A DNA stretch of 45,806 nt from Caldifarciminota bacterium. Its GTDB lineage: Bacteria; Hydrothermota; Tepidihabitantia; SM23-42. This document shows, one piece after another, positions 8,871 to 16,935 of this stretch (its first letter is position 1; every line of letters begins with the position of its first letter). Position numbers and translations under genes: made by a program. Below the pieces are notes generated by a model. It searched no databases. It saw nothing but the letters and a program-made list of their open reading frames with translations, and had not been told where the DNA came from. Location of the stretch: positions 1,522,992 to 1,568,797 of the forward strand of contig CP070686.1 of assembly GCA_020353055.1 (NCBI GenBank). Reading direction: 5' to 3'.

Positions 8871-10025
8871 TCACGGAAATATCATACGGCATTCCCCATC
8901 GAGAAATTCGATCGAACTACCCCATGATGTATCCCCGATATAGGACGGATCCAGAATGTAGTAATTTTCGCCGACACATGTCCCCTGTTGCGATAGCAAC
9001 TCGGCAGACCTTTCGGTAATCGGTTTCAATGCCAGCGCCACATGATAGGGCCACTCAACGAAAACAATATGCGAACTCGGGTAGTCGAGAACCGTTTGCA
9101 GCAAACAATAGAGCAGAACACTCCGGCCGTCACAATCATTTCTTGCCTCGGAAAATTGCCGGCTCACACTGATAACCGGTAGCGTACTATCATAAGCGAA
9201 AATATCTTCGGACTGGCAGAATTTCAGCAGAAAATTGACGCTCTCGTATTCTTCATAATCTCTAACCAGAGATTTCAATCTACCAACAAGGTCGAGTCCA
9301 TCGAGCTCCCTTATGCCGGACGCAACCATACCAAACAAGGAAGATGGCAGATTATGAGTCCATGCGACCTGTTCCTCGGGAATCTCGATGGTCACGCCAA
9401 AACGGGTATTCTCGTAGTTCCAATGTAATCGCCGGGTATACGCGGTGCCTCTGAACTCGGGCAGCCGGGCAATTGAAGGAAGTGGCTTTAAATGTGTTCC
9501 AGAGATCTCCAGACTTTGATATGCATGAGCCGGTTCATTCACGATCAACTCACCTACCGGAGTATGGTCATCGAATACTTTCAGGTAATACTTGTGCCCC
9601 CTGATATCGACCCAGTGGCCCTGTCTGACCACCCATTCATCTCCGAAATTAACACCCAGGTAATGTTCATTACCGTTATAAATATACTGAACGTCCCAAC
9701 CCCAACTCTGCATAATCGCGCATATCGCGATAATGCTGCTTTGAACATTACTTTGCTCATCTTCCAATATTTCCGAAACTGTGAAGTAATCTTTATCTGT
9801 GCTATTCTCAAAGGCAGAAAAATAGCGGATCAATTGAATCAGCATGACGAAGGGATCATCTCTTGTCGCGGCTCCGCCGAACTTCGACTCAAAAACAGAA
9901 AGCAAGGAATCAGAAACATGCTCAATGGATATGTCAAAACAATGCTGTGGCGGATCCTGCAGTAGTGTTATTTTATTGGAGTAGTTCAGTGTAAAAAATA
10001 ATACGATAGTGGCAAAAATCGACAC
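8871..10025 (-). CDS. Membrane-anchored double transglutaminase-like protein
   Basis: An N-terminal hydrophobic helix is followed by two similar halves. The second half has a full transglutaminase/cysteine-protease triad: Cys in NDCDGRSVLLYC, His in WPYHVALALKP and Asp in YILDPSYIGDTSWG. The first half has the matching layout (EQSNVQSSIIAICAI, GNEHYLGVNF, YLKVFDDHTPVG) with His and Asp kept, but Ser or Asn where the Cys should be. The first copy is therefore probably inactive and may bind substrate. The active half may cleave or crosslink peptides in the periplasm. The start is a GTG at 10025; the frame stays open about 50 nt upstream with no other standard start, so the helix may be slightly longer than annotated. 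It is the last gene of the V-ATPase operon. Confidence 0.65.
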   Translation of the reverse strand: MSIFATIVLFFTLNYSNKITLLQDPPQHCFDISIEHVSDSLLSVFESKFGGAATRDDPFVMLIQLIRYFSAFENSTDKDYFTVSEILEDEQSNVQSSIIAICAIMQSWGWDVQYIYNGNEHYLGVNFGDEWVVRQGHWVDIRGHKYYLKVFDDHTPVGELIVNEPAHAYQSLEISGTHLKPLPSIARLPEFRGTAYTRRLHWNYENTRFGVTIEIPEEQVAWTHNLPSSLFGMVASGIRELDGLDLVGRLKSLVRDYEEYESVNFLLKFCQSEDIFAYDSTLPVISVSRQFSEARNDCDGRSVLLYCLLQTVLDYPSSHIVFVEWPYHVALALKPITERSAELLSQQGTCVGENYYILDPSYIGDTSWGSSIEFLDGECRMIFP

Positions 10026-10328: not shown

Positions 10329-10952
10329 CTACACTTTACTACGCACAATCTCTTTAACCCTCATGAGTCGGGTCAAATCTCCCCGCTCCATCTCGGATAA
10401 CTTCAGGTTGATGAATTTTATCGTCTCATCTATTGAGGGAATGAGAATGTACTCCAGAGCATTGACCCGCCGCCGCGTCTTCTCAATCTCGTTTGCCAAC
10501 AACTCCAGGGTTTTCTCCAATTCGGCGAGTTCCAAAAGGCGTGAAATGAGCTGGTCTATCTTCATAAGAGCAAGGTCAAGATCGCCCGACGTCGACAAGA
10601 AGCCGTAGCCGATAAGCTGACCAGATATTTTCTTAGAAAATTTGGGGATCTTCAGATTCAGAATACGCTCTGTGCTGTGTTCGATATCGATACTTTTCGA
10701 TACGGCAAGTAGCGCTTCATCGGTAGCCTTGGGTGCTTGCTTGCTTGAGGCAAAATAGAAATACCCAAAAGCACTCCTCAGGTCTTCTTCTATCCTCAAC
10801 CTCAGCTCTCTTATTCGATAGACGAACTCAAGTATCCTGCGCATCAATTCATCCTGCTTGTCTTTAAGCAATTTGTGCCCGCGCCGAGCGACATTGCCTC
10901 GTCGCTTTAGATACAGCAATTGCATTCTGGTAGGTGGTATATCGAGCTTCAT
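10329..10952 (-). CDS. atpD: V/A-type ATPase subunit D (central stalk)
   Basis: Subunit D is the coiled-coil axle that turns inside the A3B3 head. The 207-residue protein opens with PPTRMQLLYLKRRGNVARRGHKLLKDKQDEL, a family hallmark here interrupted by normal variation, and closes with a long helix including TRRRVNALEYILIP. Its length is typical. It follows subunit B by 12 bases in the usual A-B-D order. Confidence 0.92.
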   Translation of the reverse strand: MKLDIPPTRMQLLYLKRRGNVARRGHKLLKDKQDELMRRILEFVYRIRELRLRIEEDLRSAFGYFYFASSKQAPKATDEALLAVSKSIDIEHSTERILNLKIPKFSKKISGQLIGYGFLSTSGDLDLALMKIDQLISRLLELAELEKTLELLANEIEKTRRRVNALEYILIPSIDETIKFINLKLSEMERGDLTRLMRVKEIVRSKV

Positions 10953-10964
10953 ATTCTATTCATT

Positions 10965-12365
10965 TCACCCGGTTACACCGGCTTTTTCTGGAGTTTTCGC
11001 ATCGTAATATTTCTTAAGATACTCATCACGGACCCGCTTCATCTCACCGCGTGGTACCATACGCAGCAACTCCCAGCCGAGATCGAGAGTCTGCTCGATA
11101 GTCCTGTCTTCATACTCACCTTGTGATATGTAGCGCCCCTCGTATTCCTGAGAGAATTTCAGATAGATCTTATCCATATCGGTCAACGCCGCCTCACCGA
11201 GAATCACTGCGAGCTCTGCCGCTTCCTTACCACGCGCATAGCACGCAATCAATTGATTAAACAAATCTGCATGGTCTTCTCTGGTCTTACCCTTGCCGAT
11301 TCCCTTGTCCTTCAACCTCGACAAAGACTGCTGCACATCGACAGGTGGTGATACTTTTCTTCTGTAGAGACCACGCGAAAGAATAATCTGCCCCTCGGTA
11401 ATATAGCCGGTCAAATCCGGTATCGGGTGGGTCTTGTCGTCTTCTGGCATAGAGAGTATAGGGATCAATGTAATTGAACCCTTCTTTCCCTTTATACGAC
11501 CGGACCGCTCATAAACACTTGCCAGGTCAGTATAAAGGTAACCCGGGTATCCGCGCCGGCCGGGTATCTCCTTACGCGCTGCAGAAATTTCCCGCAATGC
11601 CTCGGCGTAGTTGGTCATATCAGACAGCACCACAAGTATATGCAAGCCTTTGGTGAAAGCGAGGTACTCGGCGACCGTAAATGCCACTCGCGGAGTTGAA
11701 ATCCTTTCGATTGCGGGGTCATCGGCAAGATTGAGAAAAAGTACAACCCGTTCCAGGGCACCCGATTTGGTAAAGTCCTGGATAAAGAAATTTGCTTCTT
11801 CAAAAGTAATGCCCATTGCCCCGAAGACAACGGCAAATTCCTCCTCTTTCCCTAATACCTTCGCCTGCCTCACAATTTGCGCAGCGACCTTATTGTGAGG
11901 CAACCCAGACCCGGAGAATACTGGCAGCTTTTGCCCACGCACGAGCGTATTAATCCCATCAACCGAAGAGATACCGGTTTGAATAAATTCATTGGGATAA
12001 TCTCGCGCAGTTGGATTAATTGGAGCGCCGTTAACGTCAAGAAGCGCCTCGGGAATTATGGCAGGACCTGCATCCTTAGGACGCCCCAATCCGTCAAAGA
12101 CCCTGCCCAACATATCATCGGAAACTCCTATGCTGAGGGTCTTACCGAGAAAACGTACGCGACAGTTCTGAACATCAATACCGGTTGATCCTTCAAAGAT
12201 CTGAACGAGTGCTCTGTCTTTATCAACCTCTAAAACACGACCGCGTTTCTTGTCACCGGTTCCTGTGTATATTTCAACCAACTCTTCGTATTTCGCGCCG
12301 TCGACTCCTTCAACGAGCAGAAGCGGACCGGCGACATTTGAGATACTACTGTATTCCTTGATCAT
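10965..12365 (-). CDS. atpB: V/A-type ATPase subunit B (non-catalytic head subunit)
   Basis: The 466-residue protein matches the regulatory B subunit: [19 protein letters not shown] replaces the P-loop, as expected for this subunit, and [37 protein letters not shown] and [14 protein letters not shown] follow. The start ATG overlaps the stop of subunit A by four bases (ATGA), with AAAGGGGA upstream. It forms the A3B3 hexamer with the A subunit. Confidence 0.95.
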
Positions 12366-14191
12366 TTTCTGTCCCCTTTCCCCTTCTCATTGTCTCCATG
12401 TCCCGTTGTCTCCTTCTCCGTTTCCCTTTGTTTTGTTTCCCCCTTGATCATACCGTCGAATTCCGCGGTTAATTCATCCTTGATCGCATCAATTGTATCA
12501 AGTTTCGATTCCTCAAGATATCTCATCCTCGCGATCTTATCTCTAATGTCCATCTTCACGATATCATCGAAGGCAACACCTCGTTTAAGAGCCTCACGCG
12601 CTTTATTATAGTTGAACATGCACACCGACAGCATTTTATACTGTTTCTTGAGCGATGCATACGTATCGATCTCATGAAAAGCATTCTGATGCAGAAAATC
12701 TTCCCGTATCGAACGCGCACCTTCGAGTATGAGACGATCCTCAGGAGAAAGCGCATCGACACCGATGAGCCTGACTATCTCCTGCAATTCCGCCTCTTGC
12801 TCGAGCAATTTCATGGCCTCGCTTGACAGATCGGTGAAATCCTTCGCGGTCATCTTATTCACATCCTCGGCAATATCATCGATGTAGAGTGAATACGAAT
12901 TCAACCATGAGATAGCCGGAAAGTGCCGCTGGTATGCTAGTTTATCTTCAAGACTCCAGAAGACCTTAACAACCCTCAATGTCGCCTGTACAACCGGGTC
13001 TGAAAGATCGCCACCGGGTGGCGACACGGCACCAACTACGCTCAGTGCTCCTTCCCTCTCGGGACGACCCACCGTCTTCACTCGACCCGCCCTTTCGTAG
13101 AAAGAACTTACTCGCGCCGCAAGGTACGCCGGATACCCCTCTTCACCCGGCATTTCCTCCAACCGTCCTGAAATCTCACGCATCGCCTCAGCCCAGCGTG
13201 ATGTTGAATCGGCCATAACCGCAACTGAATAACCCATGTCACGGAAATATTCGGCTATTGTAATGCCAGTGTAAACAGACGCCTCACGGGCAGCAACCGG
13301 CATGTTGGATGTGTTGGCGATCAAGACCGTCCTCTTCATAAGGGGTTCTCCAGATCTTGGGTCCTTGAGTTCCGGAAACTCTAATAAAACGTCGGTCATT
13401 TCATTACCGCGTTCACCACAACCGATGTACACGATAATTTCTGCGTCCGCCCACTTGGCGAGCTGATGTTGTATCACCGTCTTTCCCGAACCAAAAGGAC
13501 CAGGACAACATGCCGTGCCTCCCTTGGCTATCGGGAAGAAGGTATCGATGACCCGCTGCCCCGTCGACAAAGTCAATGAAGGAGCCAGCCTTTCTTTGTA
13601 CGCCCTTGGAATCCTGACCGGCCAACGGTGCATCATGGTCAAATCATGTTTTTCTTTATCATGTTCAAGCGAACATATTACATCTGTCACCAGAAAATCG
13701 CCTTGTTTTATGTCCTTAATTTTTCCCTGCACGCCCGGCGGTACAAGAATCTTGTGCAGAACTAATGTGGTTTCCTGCACTTCACCGAGAATATCCCCGG
13801 GACTGACTTCGGTCCCCGGTTTCACGGTTGGTTTGAAGTGCCACTTCTTGTCTCGCTCCAGGGCAGGCACCTCAATCCCTCTTGTGATGTAATCGCCCGT
13901 GTTCTCTTTTATGATATCCAACGGACGCTGAATACCGTCAAAAATCGATTCGATAAGTCCTGGTCCTAATTCGACAAAAAGGGGCTCGTCGGTCATGTAC
14001 ACCGCCTCGCCGGGGCCTATCCCCGACGTATCCTCGTAGACCTGGATCGAAGCCAGATCACCGGCAAGACCAACGATCTCGCCAACAAGCCTCTCGTCAC
14101 TAACACGCACGACATCATACATCTTGCTGCCAGTCATTCCCTTTGCCACGACCAATGGGCCAGATACCTTAGTGATTTCGCCTTTCCTCAT
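12362..14191 (-). CDS. atpA: V/A-type ATPase subunit A (catalytic)
   Basis: The catalytic subunit, 609 residues. It has the P-loop GPFGSGKT near residue 235, the bulge insertion typical of V-type A subunits, [16 protein letters not shown], and [31 protein letters not shown] in family order, here split by ordinary residues. The last 25-30 residues are an unusual low-complexity tail rich in Lys, Glu, Thr and Gly, encoded by a purine-rich stretch (12362-12447, pyrimidine-rich on the plus strand). That tail also carries the ribosome binding site for subunit B. The start ATG overlaps the F-subunit stop by four bases. Confidence 0.95.
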
Positions 14192-14511
14192 CTTTCCTCC
14201 AAGAATATGTCAGCTCCTACTGCCTTTTTTATAACTCCCCTAATTCTTTCTATTGCCACTTTTGTCTTGCCCCGCCCGGATGGTATCGGAATCAAACAGG
14301 GAAGCGTCTCAGTTCGATATTTCAACAAAATGTCGCTCAACTCTTCAATGAATTCCTCGGTAAAGAGGATTATTTTGGTTCCTTCTTTGATCAAACCTTC
14401 AACTGTTTGGACACAATTTCCTTCTTTTACATAGATCACCCTTGCTCCAGTCGCAAGAAATGGCATAACTGTTTCACGTTTTCCAACGATCGCGAGTGCC
14501 TTACCAGACAT
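14188..14511 (-). CDS. atpF: V/A-type ATPase subunit F
   Basis: A small Rossmann-like subunit of 107 residues that binds subunit D and regulates the enzyme. It begins MSGKALAIVGKRETVMPFL and contains ILFTEEFIEELSDIL, typical of the family. I chose the ATG at 14511, which is preceded by AAGGAGA at suitable spacing and overlaps the stop of subunit C by 11 bases. An upstream in-frame TTG at 14538 would add residues not seen in the family. Confidence 0.9.
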   Translation of the reverse strand: MSGKALAIVGKRETVMPFLATGARVIYVKEGNCVQTVEGLIKEGTKIILFTEEFIEELSDILLKYRTETLPCLIPIPSGRGKTKVAIERIRGVIKKAVGADIFLEER

Positions 14512-15415
14512 CTGGAATACTCTCCTTAAGATCCTCAACCGGAACCTCGTTCAACTTACCCCAATAGACCTGCCGTAACTTGGTAATTTCGCCAGTCTTA
14601 AATTTGTAGTACGTGAAAAGAGGCTCGACACCGAATGTCATGCGCCTGGCCTTTAACAAATAGCCGAATCTGTACTCCTCGTAGAGTCTCTCAAGACGGA
14701 GAAATGAATTGTTCTCTTCGAAGTAAGCACCGCCCTTCTCGATCAGAGATACATAAGGAGTATTGAAAAAATTGCGCCCGAGCTGTTCCTGTGCCACATC
14801 AAGATTGTCTACAAAAAACTCCAATTTCAAGCGGCCCCACGGCAGGTATACCTGCTTGAATATTTCACGTCTATTTTCAAATTGCCTCGCTCTGAAAAAA
14901 CTGCGGATATTTTCTAACTCGAAATACATTTCATAGTAATATTGAAAAAATGGCACAAAGACCGCCGTTTGATACACATACTTGCAGAGTATACGATCCA
15001 GGTTCGTAGACAGCACAAAGGGATCCTTATCTACCGCAAACCGTGCTACTTCATCGAGCACTTCAGGCCATGACTCAACAATATTTGCATCCTGCTTATA
15101 TAGTAGATCCTCCCCACCTTCCTTCAGTTTCACTTTGATATTGTGGAGTTGCTCAGGCCAGTCAATAAAACTCTTGACCTCTTCGGTAATGCAAAAGCGG
15201 TTGAAGAAACTGCGTACAGATTCTTCCTCAGCATCGAGACTATTAAGCAGGTCATCCTGTCTCACATATGGTGTGTCAGAGAGGATAGTATTGAAACTCG
15301 CATGGTCGGCGGCAATCAACCGGTCAAAATGCCCTCTCGTCAAGAGCCTCGCTTCAAGCGCCCTTATTATGCCGTTCACATATGCATACCTGGTATCCTC
15401 AGTTCCCCTGATCAT
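14501..15415 (-). CDS. atpC: V/A-type ATPase subunit C (AC39 family)
   Basis: A mostly helical protein of 304 residues, slightly shorter than usual. It opens with YAYVNGIIRALEARLLTRGH, the AC39 family start, and contains ENIRSFFRARQFENRREIFK and the C-terminal EPLFTYYKFKTGEITKLR. Subunit C joins the central stalk to the membrane ring. It is the first recognised ATPase gene of the operon and overlaps the preceding 93-aa gene by four bases. Confidence 0.9.
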   Translation of the reverse strand: MIRGTEDTRYAYVNGIIRALEARLLTRGHFDRLIAADHASFNTILSDTPYVRQDDLLNSLDAEEESVRSFFNRFCITEEVKSFIDWPEQLHNIKVKLKEGGEDLLYKQDANIVESWPEVLDEVARFAVDKDPFVLSTNLDRILCKYVYQTAVFVPFFQYYYEMYFELENIRSFFRARQFENRREIFKQVYLPWGRLKLEFFVDNLDVAQEQLGRNFFNTPYVSLIEKGGAYFEENNSFLRLERLYEEYRFGYLLKARRMTFGVEPLFTYYKFKTGEITKLRQVYWGKLNEVPVEDLKESIPDVW

Positions 15416-15693
15416 CGCGATTCTACCACCTTGATAATCTCAAAATTTTCATCTAATGTCACCAGCAGGATTCTATCAATAGGTGTTTCATCCGCCGTTA
15501 TGACTACCCTCTCGAATTTCAGTCGATACATACTCTTGAATTGTTTGGGCACTCCCATATCGAGCTTCCTGTAAATTGCGTCCTGCGGCCTGATCGTCTT
15601 CTCTGAAATTTCCGGCTCAACGTCCTTGAATTCCGGATATTGCTCAGCAATCTCTTTCTTTATTTTATCAAGATGCTCACGGTCAATCAACAC
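15412..15693 (-). CDS. Conserved-looking 93-aa protein of unknown function in the V-ATPase operon
   Basis: I do not recognise the family. The N-terminal half is charged and helical (DREHLDKIKKEIAEQYPEF). The C-terminal half looks like a small beta-rich domain (YRLKFERVVITADETPIDRI, then LLVTLDENFEIIKVVESR). There is no signal peptide or membrane segment. The start is GTG at 15693: a GTGGAGG site lies seven bases upstream, and the C25-like gene ends two bases before it. A longer reading to 15846 would run inside the C25-like gene and is rejected. It overlaps subunit C by four bases (ATGA), so its product is probably made together with the ATPase. Confidence 0.7.
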   Translation of the reverse strand: MLIDREHLDKIKKEIAEQYPEFKDVEPEISEKTIRPQDAIYRKLDMGVPKQFKSMYRLKFERVVITADETPIDRILLVTLDENFEIIKVVESR

Positions 15694-15694
15694 T

Positions 15695-16747
15695 TCACGC
15701 CTCCACCTGGTCCGGACGCACCCTGAGCGTAGGATCGCCATACAGAACGAACTGCAGAAGCGTTTTCTGGTCATCGTCATCGAGAAAACCGCGCCGGCGC
15801 AATGATTTACGAGCGAAATCGAGTTTTGCATTTCTAAGACTTGCACCCAGTGTATGACCCTGCTGCAGGTATTCGAAGAAGTACTTCACAACCAGATCTG
15901 CTTCACTCGATGGTGGTTTTACGGGTCCGTAGGCAATCGTCGTAGAACCACAAAAACCGATGACGCCATCCTCAGCCAGAAATTTTATGCACACAGCATC
16001 ATCCTCTGCCTTGTCGATAATATATGCACCATAGCATGATTCGGAAGCAACAATGCCAGATGCACTCACTACATTATCTGGGCTCATCGCCACCGGGTAA
16101 TCAGCACCGTCCTGACCGTACCAGTTTGCGGAGATTTTGCTCCCATGAACGTTAAAATACAGGTAGTCTCTCTTCTGCAGCCATGCTTTATCGAACGTCT
16201 TGCGCGTAACCGGCGGCGTGCATTTCAATTCATCAGGCTCACCCACAGACCGATATACGTTTTCCGATGCCTTTTGCCAAACCATGGCGGTCAACCCGAA
16301 CGAGTTATCATATCGTGATGCGGCTTTGGTCAATTGTTTCAGGATAAAATCAGAACTGCCGTTATCCGGAATACGCGAGCATGCACGCTCTGGTAGAATA
16401 TAATTGTCGTCCCGCGAGGCATACGGATTATCAGATAGTACATTCTCGTCGGCGTCGTCACAAGGGTTATCCAGACGGAAAAAAGGTATCACCTCATCAC
16501 CTCCCAAGAGCATGAGATAATCGAATTCACCCACCTTCTTCTCCAAAAGGGAAACATATTCTCTTATTGCCTCAGCATCCTTTTCAACCGGCTCAACCCG
16601 GTACTTATTTGGCGTGTCGTAATAACAAAATATCGGTTCGTAAATCTTCCTGGATTCAATATATTCCTTTATCGCTTTCTCAAAGGGGCGGATTGCTCTG
16701 ATTCGTTCATGCAGCGCCTTTTTGCCGCTCAGAATCAGCATCCGCAT
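15695..16747 (-). CDS. Cytosolic gingipain-like cysteine peptidase (family C25, clan CD)
   Basis: The 350-residue protein has the clan CD caspase-like core. LLGGDEVIPFF and PYASRDDNYILPE match the C25 substrate-site region. The catalytic His is at about 201 in YLYFNVHGS, and the catalytic Cys at about 238 in ASESCYGAY. The block ends with FVLYGDPTLRV, as in gingipain-type domains. Unlike secreted gingipains and the T9SS sortase PorU, it has no signal peptide, propeptide or sorting domain. Translation starts at the ATG at 16747, five bases after the -10 box, so the mRNA should be leaderless. It is the first gene of the V-ATPase operon; its target is unknown. Confidence 0.75.
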   Translation of the reverse strand: MRMLILSGKKALHERIRAIRPFEKAIKEYIESRKIYEPIFCYYDTPNKYRVEPVEKDAEAIREYVSLLEKKVGEFDYLMLLGGDEVIPFFRLDNPCDDADENVLSDNPYASRDDNYILPERACSRIPDNGSSDFILKQLTKAASRYDNSFGLTAMVWQKASENVYRSVGEPDELKCTPPVTRKTFDKAWLQKRDYLYFNVHGSKISANWYGQDGADYPVAMSPDNVVSASGIVASESCYGAYIIDKAEDDAVCIKFLAEDGVIGFCGSTTIAYGPVKPPSSEADLVVKYFFEYLQQGHTLGASLRNAKLDFARKSLRRRGFLDDDDQKTLLQFVLYGDPTLRVRPDQVEA

Positions 16748-16837: not shown

Positions 16838-16911
16838 CGGGGCGTGGCGCAGTGGCTTAGCGCGCATGGTTTGGGACCATGAGGTCGTGGGTTCAAATCC
16901 CACCGCCCCGA
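16838..16911 (+). tRNA. tRNA-Pro, anticodon UGG
   Basis: A complete cloverleaf. The acceptor arms CGGGGCG (16838-16844) and CGCCCCG (16904-16910) pair perfectly. The anticodon stem CATGG/CCATG encloses the loop TTTGGGA with anticodon TGG at 16872-16874, and the T arm is GTGGG-TTCAAAT-CCCAC. The discriminator is A at 16911. CCA is not encoded and must be added by the nucleotidyltransferase. Confidence 0.97.
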
Positions 16912-16935
16912 CTCGCTGCGCTCGCTCGAAGATTG

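What the first reader, a model, noticed from the sequence alone, without database searches (positions are those of the whole stretch)
15695..16747. Cytosolic gingipain/caspase-fold peptidase heads a V-ATPase operon
The first gene of the ATPase operon encodes a protein with C25 (clan CD) motifs, including the His (NVHGS) and Cys (SESCYGA) of the catalytic dyad, but no signal peptide. C25 enzymes are normally secreted or, as PorU, act as sortase of the type IX system. A leaderless intracellular relative co-expressed with the rotary ATPase could be a regulatory protease, a quality-control enzyme for ATPase assembly, or a cell-suicide type factor. Only the placement and motifs are seen; the role is inference.
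Basis: partly seen in the sequence, partly recalled or inferred. Interest (0 to 1): 0.65.

Follow-up and report, generated by a model that had tools for sequence, protein, structure and literature searches.

The report
Leaderless gingipain-like protease with partner
The gene encodes a gingipain-fold cysteine protease that lacks an export signal and prodomain and is found, in dozens of uncultured bacteria, together with one uncharacterised small protein whose tail almost always ends in a lysine or arginine like a protease product; the neighbouring ATPase genes are a local coincidence.

Summary
Observation confirmed, with two corrections: the gene is on the minus strand (16747 to 15695), and the gene between it and atpC, a 93-aa ORF (15693 to 15412), matters more than the ATPase. 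The 350-aa product is a bare C25 (gingipain) catalytic domain with no signal peptide, prodomain or secretion domain; the His/Cys dyad (H201, C238) is invariant in 42/42 orthologues. Among 390 genomes, 45 carry both the protease and the small protein (one a contig-edge protease fragment), one (77% complete) the protease alone, none the small protein alone; usually they are adjacent, in one lineage unlinked, and the pair recurs outside the phylum. V-ATPase linkage holds only in the window's family and one related genome; elsewhere the pair sits by unrelated genes, and two near-complete genomes carry it with no V-ATPase detected. A role in the ATPase is therefore unlikely. The partner matches no known family; it ends exactly five residues after an invariant Lys in 46/47 sequences, with C-terminal Lys/Arg in 43/47. 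C25 enzymes cleave after Arg/Lys, and NleF inhibits a caspase by inserting its C-terminus. Most likely: a dedicated intracellular inhibitor acting as an active-site product mimic (inferred, ~0.5). New variant of a known family.

The parts
15695..16747 (-). Leaderless C25 (gingipain-family) cysteine peptidase, 350 aa, here called C25o; only the catalytic domain
   Evidence: ORF; PF01364 E=3.4e-11; hhalign vs secreted C25 96%, E=3.9e-9; orthologues
16145..16147 (-). codon of catalytic His (H201) in YFNVHGS
   Evidence: invariant in 42/42 orthologues; equivalent by motif to the NYTGHGS His211 of RgpB (sequence)
16034..16036 (-). codon of catalytic Cys (C238) in SESCYGA
   Evidence: invariant in 42/42 orthologues; aligned with the C25 Cys by hhalign
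15412..15693 (-). 93-aa partner protein (orf93), GTG start; predicted helix packed on a four-stranded sheet; no known family
   Evidence: co-occurrence; no meaningful Pfam/NCBIfam/PADLOC/PHROGs hit
15415..15432 (-). invariant-length C-terminal tail of orf93, KVVESR-COOH (consensus K-x3-[ST]-[KR]-stop), residues 88-93; stop codon 15414..15412
   Evidence: 46/47 homologues have exactly 5 residues after K88; 43/47 end in K/R; 42/47 end in [ST][KR] against 1.2% of 487 neighbouring ORFs
14501..15415 (-). V-ATPase subunit C (atpC), overlaps the orf93 stop by 4 nt; neighbour, not part of the conserved module
   Evidence: PF01992 E=1.1e-24; linkage in f1 and one f3 genome only
10329..14538 (-). V-ATPase subunits F, A, B, D; neighbours, not part of the conserved module
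   Evidence: Pfam

Best explanation
The peptidase is a cytosolic C25 protease reduced to its catalytic domain, and the following gene encodes its dedicated partner. Secreted gingipains are held inactive by an N-terminal prodomain that pushes an Arg into the S1 pocket. This protein has no prodomain, and I propose that the 93-aa partner replaces it in trans: a small helix-plus-sheet protein whose last strand carries its C-terminus (K-x3-S-[K/R]-COOH) into the protease cleft, with the terminal Lys/Arg in S1 like a cleavage product. It would thus be a tight, reversible inhibitor, and perhaps a folding chaperone, relieved when the partner is removed or displaced. Shown: leaderless minimal C25 domain, invariant dyad, near-perfect co-occurrence of the two genes including unlinked cases, fixed length and basic end of the partner's C-terminus, independence from V-ATPase. 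Inferred: that the two proteins bind, that binding inhibits, that the tail enters S1, and that P1 is Arg/Lys. The physiological substrate is unknown.
For: Co-occurrence over 390 genomes: 45 with both (G104's protease is a contig-edge fragment), 1 protease only (G080, 77% complete), 0 partner only after discarding a QueD-like false hit in G146 (Fisher 2e-58, not corrected for shared ancestry). Presence persists where the genes are unlinked (f15: G069, G074, G085). Five genomes outside the phylum carry the pair side by side. The partner's C-terminus is among its most conserved parts (K88 46/47, S92 43/47) and constant in length, while the protease's own C-terminal tail varies from 1 to 23 residues. 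Precedents: C25 cleaves after Arg or Lys, and the RgpB prodomain puts Arg126 into S1 (PMC4357240); the separate 205-residue gingipain prodomain is listed with Ki 6.2 nM (PMC7863939); NleF inhibits caspase-9, also clan CD, by inserting its C-terminus, and truncated or elongated C-termini abolish this (PMC3597564); SpeB-Spi and staphopain-staphostatin are adjacent co-transcribed protease-inhibitor pairs (PMC2873492). Cystatin-like arrangements top the partner's structural list, weakly (Z 5.8, rmsd 2.6, 68 residues).
Against: No complex was modelled. RgpB Asp163 (the S1 acid) has no evident acidic counterpart near residues 151-170 of this family, so Arg/Lys specificity is not established. Three lineages end in His, Gly or Val (the Val case looks like a frameshift in a low-coverage contig). 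The predicted last strand runs almost to the C-terminus (residues 86-92), so the tail may be less free than the model needs. A substrate, adaptor or activator would show the same co-occurrence.
Confidence: 0.5

Rival explanations
1. The partner is not an inhibitor but an activator, substrate adaptor or dedicated substrate of the protease; the basic C-terminus is a recognition element.
For: Same co-occurrence and conserved tail; no direct evidence of inhibition; S1 acid not identified.
Against: A substrate that already ends at the P1-like residue has nothing left to cleave there, and exact end conservation is better explained by a product-like end; known bacterial cysteine protease/small-protein gene pairs are protease/inhibitor pairs.
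Confidence: 0.3
2. Toxin-antitoxin-like or cell-suicide device: the protease kills the cell when its labile partner is lost.
For: Bare intracellular clan CD protease with a small partner encoded downstream; tight gene spacing.
Against: One locus per genome and present in 21 of 23 genomes of the window's family, missing only from two incomplete ones (67% and 53%); embedded among housekeeping genes; no PADLOC or PHROGs match; the one CRISPR neighbour (G094) is not kept in G075 of the same genus.
Confidence: 0.1
3. One reading: a regulatory or quality-control protease of the V-ATPase.
For: Tight operon with V-ATPase genes in all 20 readable f1 loci, and atpC next to the pair in one f3 genome.
Against: No V-ATPase linkage in 25 loci of other families; pair present without detectable V-ATPase in G025 and G094; most V-ATPase-bearing genomes of the phylum lack the pair.
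Confidence: 0.05
4. Peptide ligase reading: C25o conjugates the partner through its C-terminal Lys/Arg to other proteins, as a modifier system.
For: Clan CD includes ligases (legumain, GPI transamidase; own knowledge); strictly fixed C-terminus of a small protein.
Against: Already-mature C-terminus with no constant activating enzyme beside it; predicted fold does not match beta-grasp modifiers.
Confidence: 0.04

Closest known systems
Peptidase family C25 (gingipains RgpB and Kgp, PorU)
   Same: Catalytic domain, HGS...W and C-x-G motifs, terminal GDP strand; hhalign 96% to secreted C25 of the same genome, which in turn match RgpB and Kgp
   Different: No signal peptide, prodomain, Ig-like or secretion domain; 350 aa against frames of 555-1417 aa for the other 22 C25 hits of this genome; paired with a separate small protein
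SpeB-Spi and staphopain-staphostatin protease-inhibitor pairs (PMC2873492)
   Same: Cysteine protease gene next to a gene for a small protein, co-directional and tightly spaced
   Different: Those proteases are secreted and papain-like (clan CA; own knowledge); their inhibitors are thought to protect the cell from misplaced protease; no sequence similarity was found here
NleF inhibition of caspase-9 (PMC3597564)
   Same: Proposed mode: inserted C-terminus in a clan CD protease, sensitive to C-terminal length
   Different: NleF acts on a host caspase; here the partner is endogenous and ends in Lys/Arg rather than Gly; sequence relation not tested
RgpB prodomain (4IEF)
   Same: Proposed role: occupy S1 with a basic residue
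   Different: 229-residue N-terminal domain acting in cis through an internal loop (PMC4357240)

Membership tests
Peptidase family C25 | match to the C25 profile over the curated cut-off | tested here: met
   PF01364 43.4 bits vs 23; 13 of 14 diverse orthologues match at E<=0.01
Peptidase family C25 | clan CD His-Gly and Cys dyad motifs | tested here: met
   H201 G202 and C238 invariant in 42/42
Peptidase family C25 | caspase-like fold | tested here: inconclusive
   Model pLDDT 54 with a poor catalytic half; Foldseek still ranks RgpB and Kgp first, E=7e-5; VIA Z 6.7 to 4IEF over residues 1-144 only, tied with integrin I domains
Peptidase family C25 | S1 acidic residue giving Arg/Lys specificity (Asp163 in RgpB) | tested here: inconclusive
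   No conserved acid in the equivalent stretch; invariant E236, E282, D284 are candidates
Secreted gingipain or PorU type | signal peptide, prodomain and type IX secretion domain | tested here: not met
   Protein begins and ends at the catalytic domain
V-ATPase accessory protein | conserved linkage or co-occurrence with V-ATPase genes | tested here: not met
Catalogued protease inhibitor families (for orf93) | sequence match over a family cut-off | tested here: not met
   No Pfam or NCBIfam match over a cut-off
Cystatin fold (for orf93) | helix wrapped by an antiparallel sheet | tested here: inconclusive
   Top VIA match is a designed cystatin fold, Z 5.8, within the range of common arrangements
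Protease inhibitor (for orf93) | binding and inhibition of the cognate protease | not testable with these tools
   needs biochemistry or a complex prediction

The most novel reading that the evidence does not exclude
A previously undescribed two-gene intracellular proteolysis system of uncultured bacteria (WOR-3/Stahlbacteria and at least two further lineages outside that phylum): a prodomain-less gingipain-fold protease controlled by an obligate partner that acts as a split-off prodomain by inserting its own C-terminal Lys/Arg into the active site, an endogenous counterpart of the NleF mode.
Probability: 0.4. Interest if true: 0.72.

Novelty: new variant of a known kind. Interest (0 to 1): 0.55.

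Why it matters
C25 peptidases are known almost only as secreted virulence factors and as the type IX sortase. A conserved intracellular branch with a fixed partner would show that this fold also serves inside bacterial cells, as caspase relatives do elsewhere, and would give a simple two-protein system for studying control of clan CD proteases in trans. It also corrects a tempting functional inference from a single operon.

Tried and rejected
V-ATPase role: rejected on linkage and co-occurrence. Sequence search of the protease alone or as a profile against the PDB gave nothing; the link to gingipains had to go through secreted paralogues. The AlphaFold model of the protease was too weak in its catalytic half. 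The partner gave no significant Foldseek match (best E 0.029, HCMV pentamer chains) and only middling VIA Z; Pfam scans of 21 homologues gave scattered single weak hits only. A weak partner hit in G146 is a QueD-like protein, set aside (identification by eye). Defence system: no PADLOC match. Fusing protease and partner into one artificial chain to model the complex was considered and not done, since it would be a changed copy of a window protein. Literature searches for C25 in WOR-3 or intracellular C25 found nothing in the open library.

Full report
What is there. The coordinates 15695..16747 hold a 350-aa ORF on the minus strand. It matches Pfam Peptidase_C25 at E=3.4e-11. The window is part of a 2.69-Mb one-contig genome; the named relatives found are mostly candidate division WOR-3 / Stahlbacteria MAGs, one labelled TA06.

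The protease. The protein starts on the first strand of the C25 catalytic domain and ends just after its last strand (GDPTLRV). There is no signal peptide, prodomain, Ig-like or secretion domain; the N-terminal hydrophobicity of 42 orthologues is too low for a leader. H201-G202 and C238 are invariant in 42/42, as are W157, W209, Y210, G211, E236, P278, P279, E282, D284, D323 and D326. The same genome has 22 other C25 hits, in open frames of 555 to 1417 aa. A profile of orthologues (A4) does not reach the PDB by itself, but it matches a profile of the secreted C25 domains of this genome at 96% probability, E=3.9e-9, with the catalytic Cys aligned. Those in turn match RgpB, Kgp and PorU structures at E from 2.8e-51 to 2.1e-24. 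The AlphaFold model is poor (pLDDT 54), yet Foldseek puts RgpB (4IEF, 1CVR) and Kgp at the top of the list. I therefore file it in family C25 as a leaderless, prodomain-less branch, called C25o here. P1 specificity is not settled: the stretch corresponding to RgpB Asp163 carries no conserved acid.

Is it tied to the V-ATPase? Orthologues were found in 43 of 120 relatives, and their neighbourhoods were read. In family f1, V-ATPase genes follow in all 20 loci that can be read; in a 21st (G012) a start of atpC is followed by a run of N, while its V-ATPase genes lie about 300 kb away. One f3 genome also has atpC next to the pair. In 20 loci from eight other families of the phylum no V-ATPase gene is near, nor in five loci outside the phylum. 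Neighbours there are unrelated: MnmG, prepilin peptidase, an ECF sigma factor, TauE, PilB/GspE, and in one genome a CRISPR-Cas cluster. V-ATPase D occurs in 122 of 147 genomes of the phylum, far more than the 43-44 with C25o. G025 (95% complete) and G094 (99%) have the pair but no V-ATPase D hit; with subunit A as query G094 has none and G025 only relatives at 26-32% identity. Operon membership in f1 thus reflects local gene order, not a general function.

The constant partner. What does travel with C25o is the 93-aa protein. A profile of it (A3) hits 46 of 390 genomes; C25o at E<=1e-30 is in 45 of the same 390. Comparing the lists: 44 genomes have both by these thresholds. G104 has the partner and a C25o fragment at a contig edge, making 45. 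G080 (77% complete) has C25o only. G146 has a weak partner hit that is a QueD-like protein. No genome has the partner without C25o. The nominal Fisher value is 2e-58, which ignores shared ancestry and should not be read as a probability. More telling, in family f15 three genomes keep both genes although they are no longer adjacent, and five genomes outside the phylum, from two lineages, carry the two close together on the same strand.

The partner is predicted as a helix followed by a four-stranded sheet with a short helix after the first strand (pLDDT 80). Foldseek finds nothing significant; VIA-align puts a designed cystatin fold first at Z 5.8 over 68 residues, a level that may be only a common arrangement. 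No Pfam, NCBIfam, PADLOC or PHROGs family covers it. Its conspicuous feature is the C-terminus. After a nearly invariant Lys (46/47) there are exactly five residues in 46/47 sequences, ending in Lys or Arg in 43/47 and in [ST][KR] in 42/47. Of 487 neighbouring ORFs, 29% end in K/R but only 1.2% in [ST][KR], and C25o itself has a tail varying from 1 to 23 residues. The exceptions are His (f26, two genomes), Gly (one f18 genome) and Val (G026, probable frameshift).

How it most likely works. Family C25 cleaves after Arg or Lys, and the RgpB prodomain inhibits by injecting Arg126 into S1 (PMC4357240). C25o lacks a prodomain. A separate protein ending in a basic residue at a fixed position fits a product-like inhibitor in trans. 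NleF shows that a clan CD protease can be blocked by an inserted C-terminus, and that truncated or elongated C-termini lose activity (PMC3597564), which would explain the fixed length here. Adjacent protease-inhibitor pairs are known for SpeB-Spi and the staphopains (PMC2873492). Binding, inhibition and tail insertion are inferred, not shown; I give this mechanism 0.5. The main rival is that the partner is an activator, adaptor or substrate (0.3).

Known or new. It is a member of C25 by profile and motifs, but not of the secreted gingipain/PorU type. The partner family and the pairing appear undescribed; searches of the open literature found nothing, which is weak evidence because subscription journals are mostly missing from that library. 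I rate it a new variant of a known kind, of moderate interest.

Noticed in passing
window 16838-16912 (+): tRNA-Pro (TGG) lies on the opposite strand between sucD and the C25o start.
   Followed up: no
G000:C1:2651577-2652791 (L149, L150): The V-ATPase I subunit lies about 1.1 Mb from the C-F-A-B-D cluster of the window, so the V-ATPase genes are split in this genome.
   Followed up: no
L007, L008 (G000 secreted C25 paralogues): Some secreted C25 domains seem to have lost the catalytic His (YRGLG, YRGSG where others have GHG), so this genome also carries likely pseudo-peptidases.
   Followed up: no
L088 (G094) 10789-14322: A CRISPR-Cas cluster (Cas6, TM1802, Cas7) follows the pair in this genome, but TauE follows it in another genome of the same genus, G075.
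   Followed up: partly
L075, L078, L081 (family f15): C25o is followed here by an ECF sigma factor (Pfam in L075) and, in L075, a 241-aa protein that reads like a zinc-finger anti-sigma protein; the partner gene sits on another contig.
   Followed up: partly
L071 (G012:C1, about 914 kb): A start of atpC behind the pair is followed by a run of N while the V-ATPase A, B and D genes lie about 300 kb away: recent break-up of the cluster or a scaffolding error.
   Followed up: no
L072 (G026) partner C-terminus: The only homologue that breaks the tail motif completely (NENKSV) looks frameshifted, in a contig of about 4x coverage.
   Followed up: no
window 8871-10025 (-): 384-aa ORF downstream of atpD with no Pfam or NCBIfam match; a homologue follows atpD in several f1 loci.
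   Followed up: no
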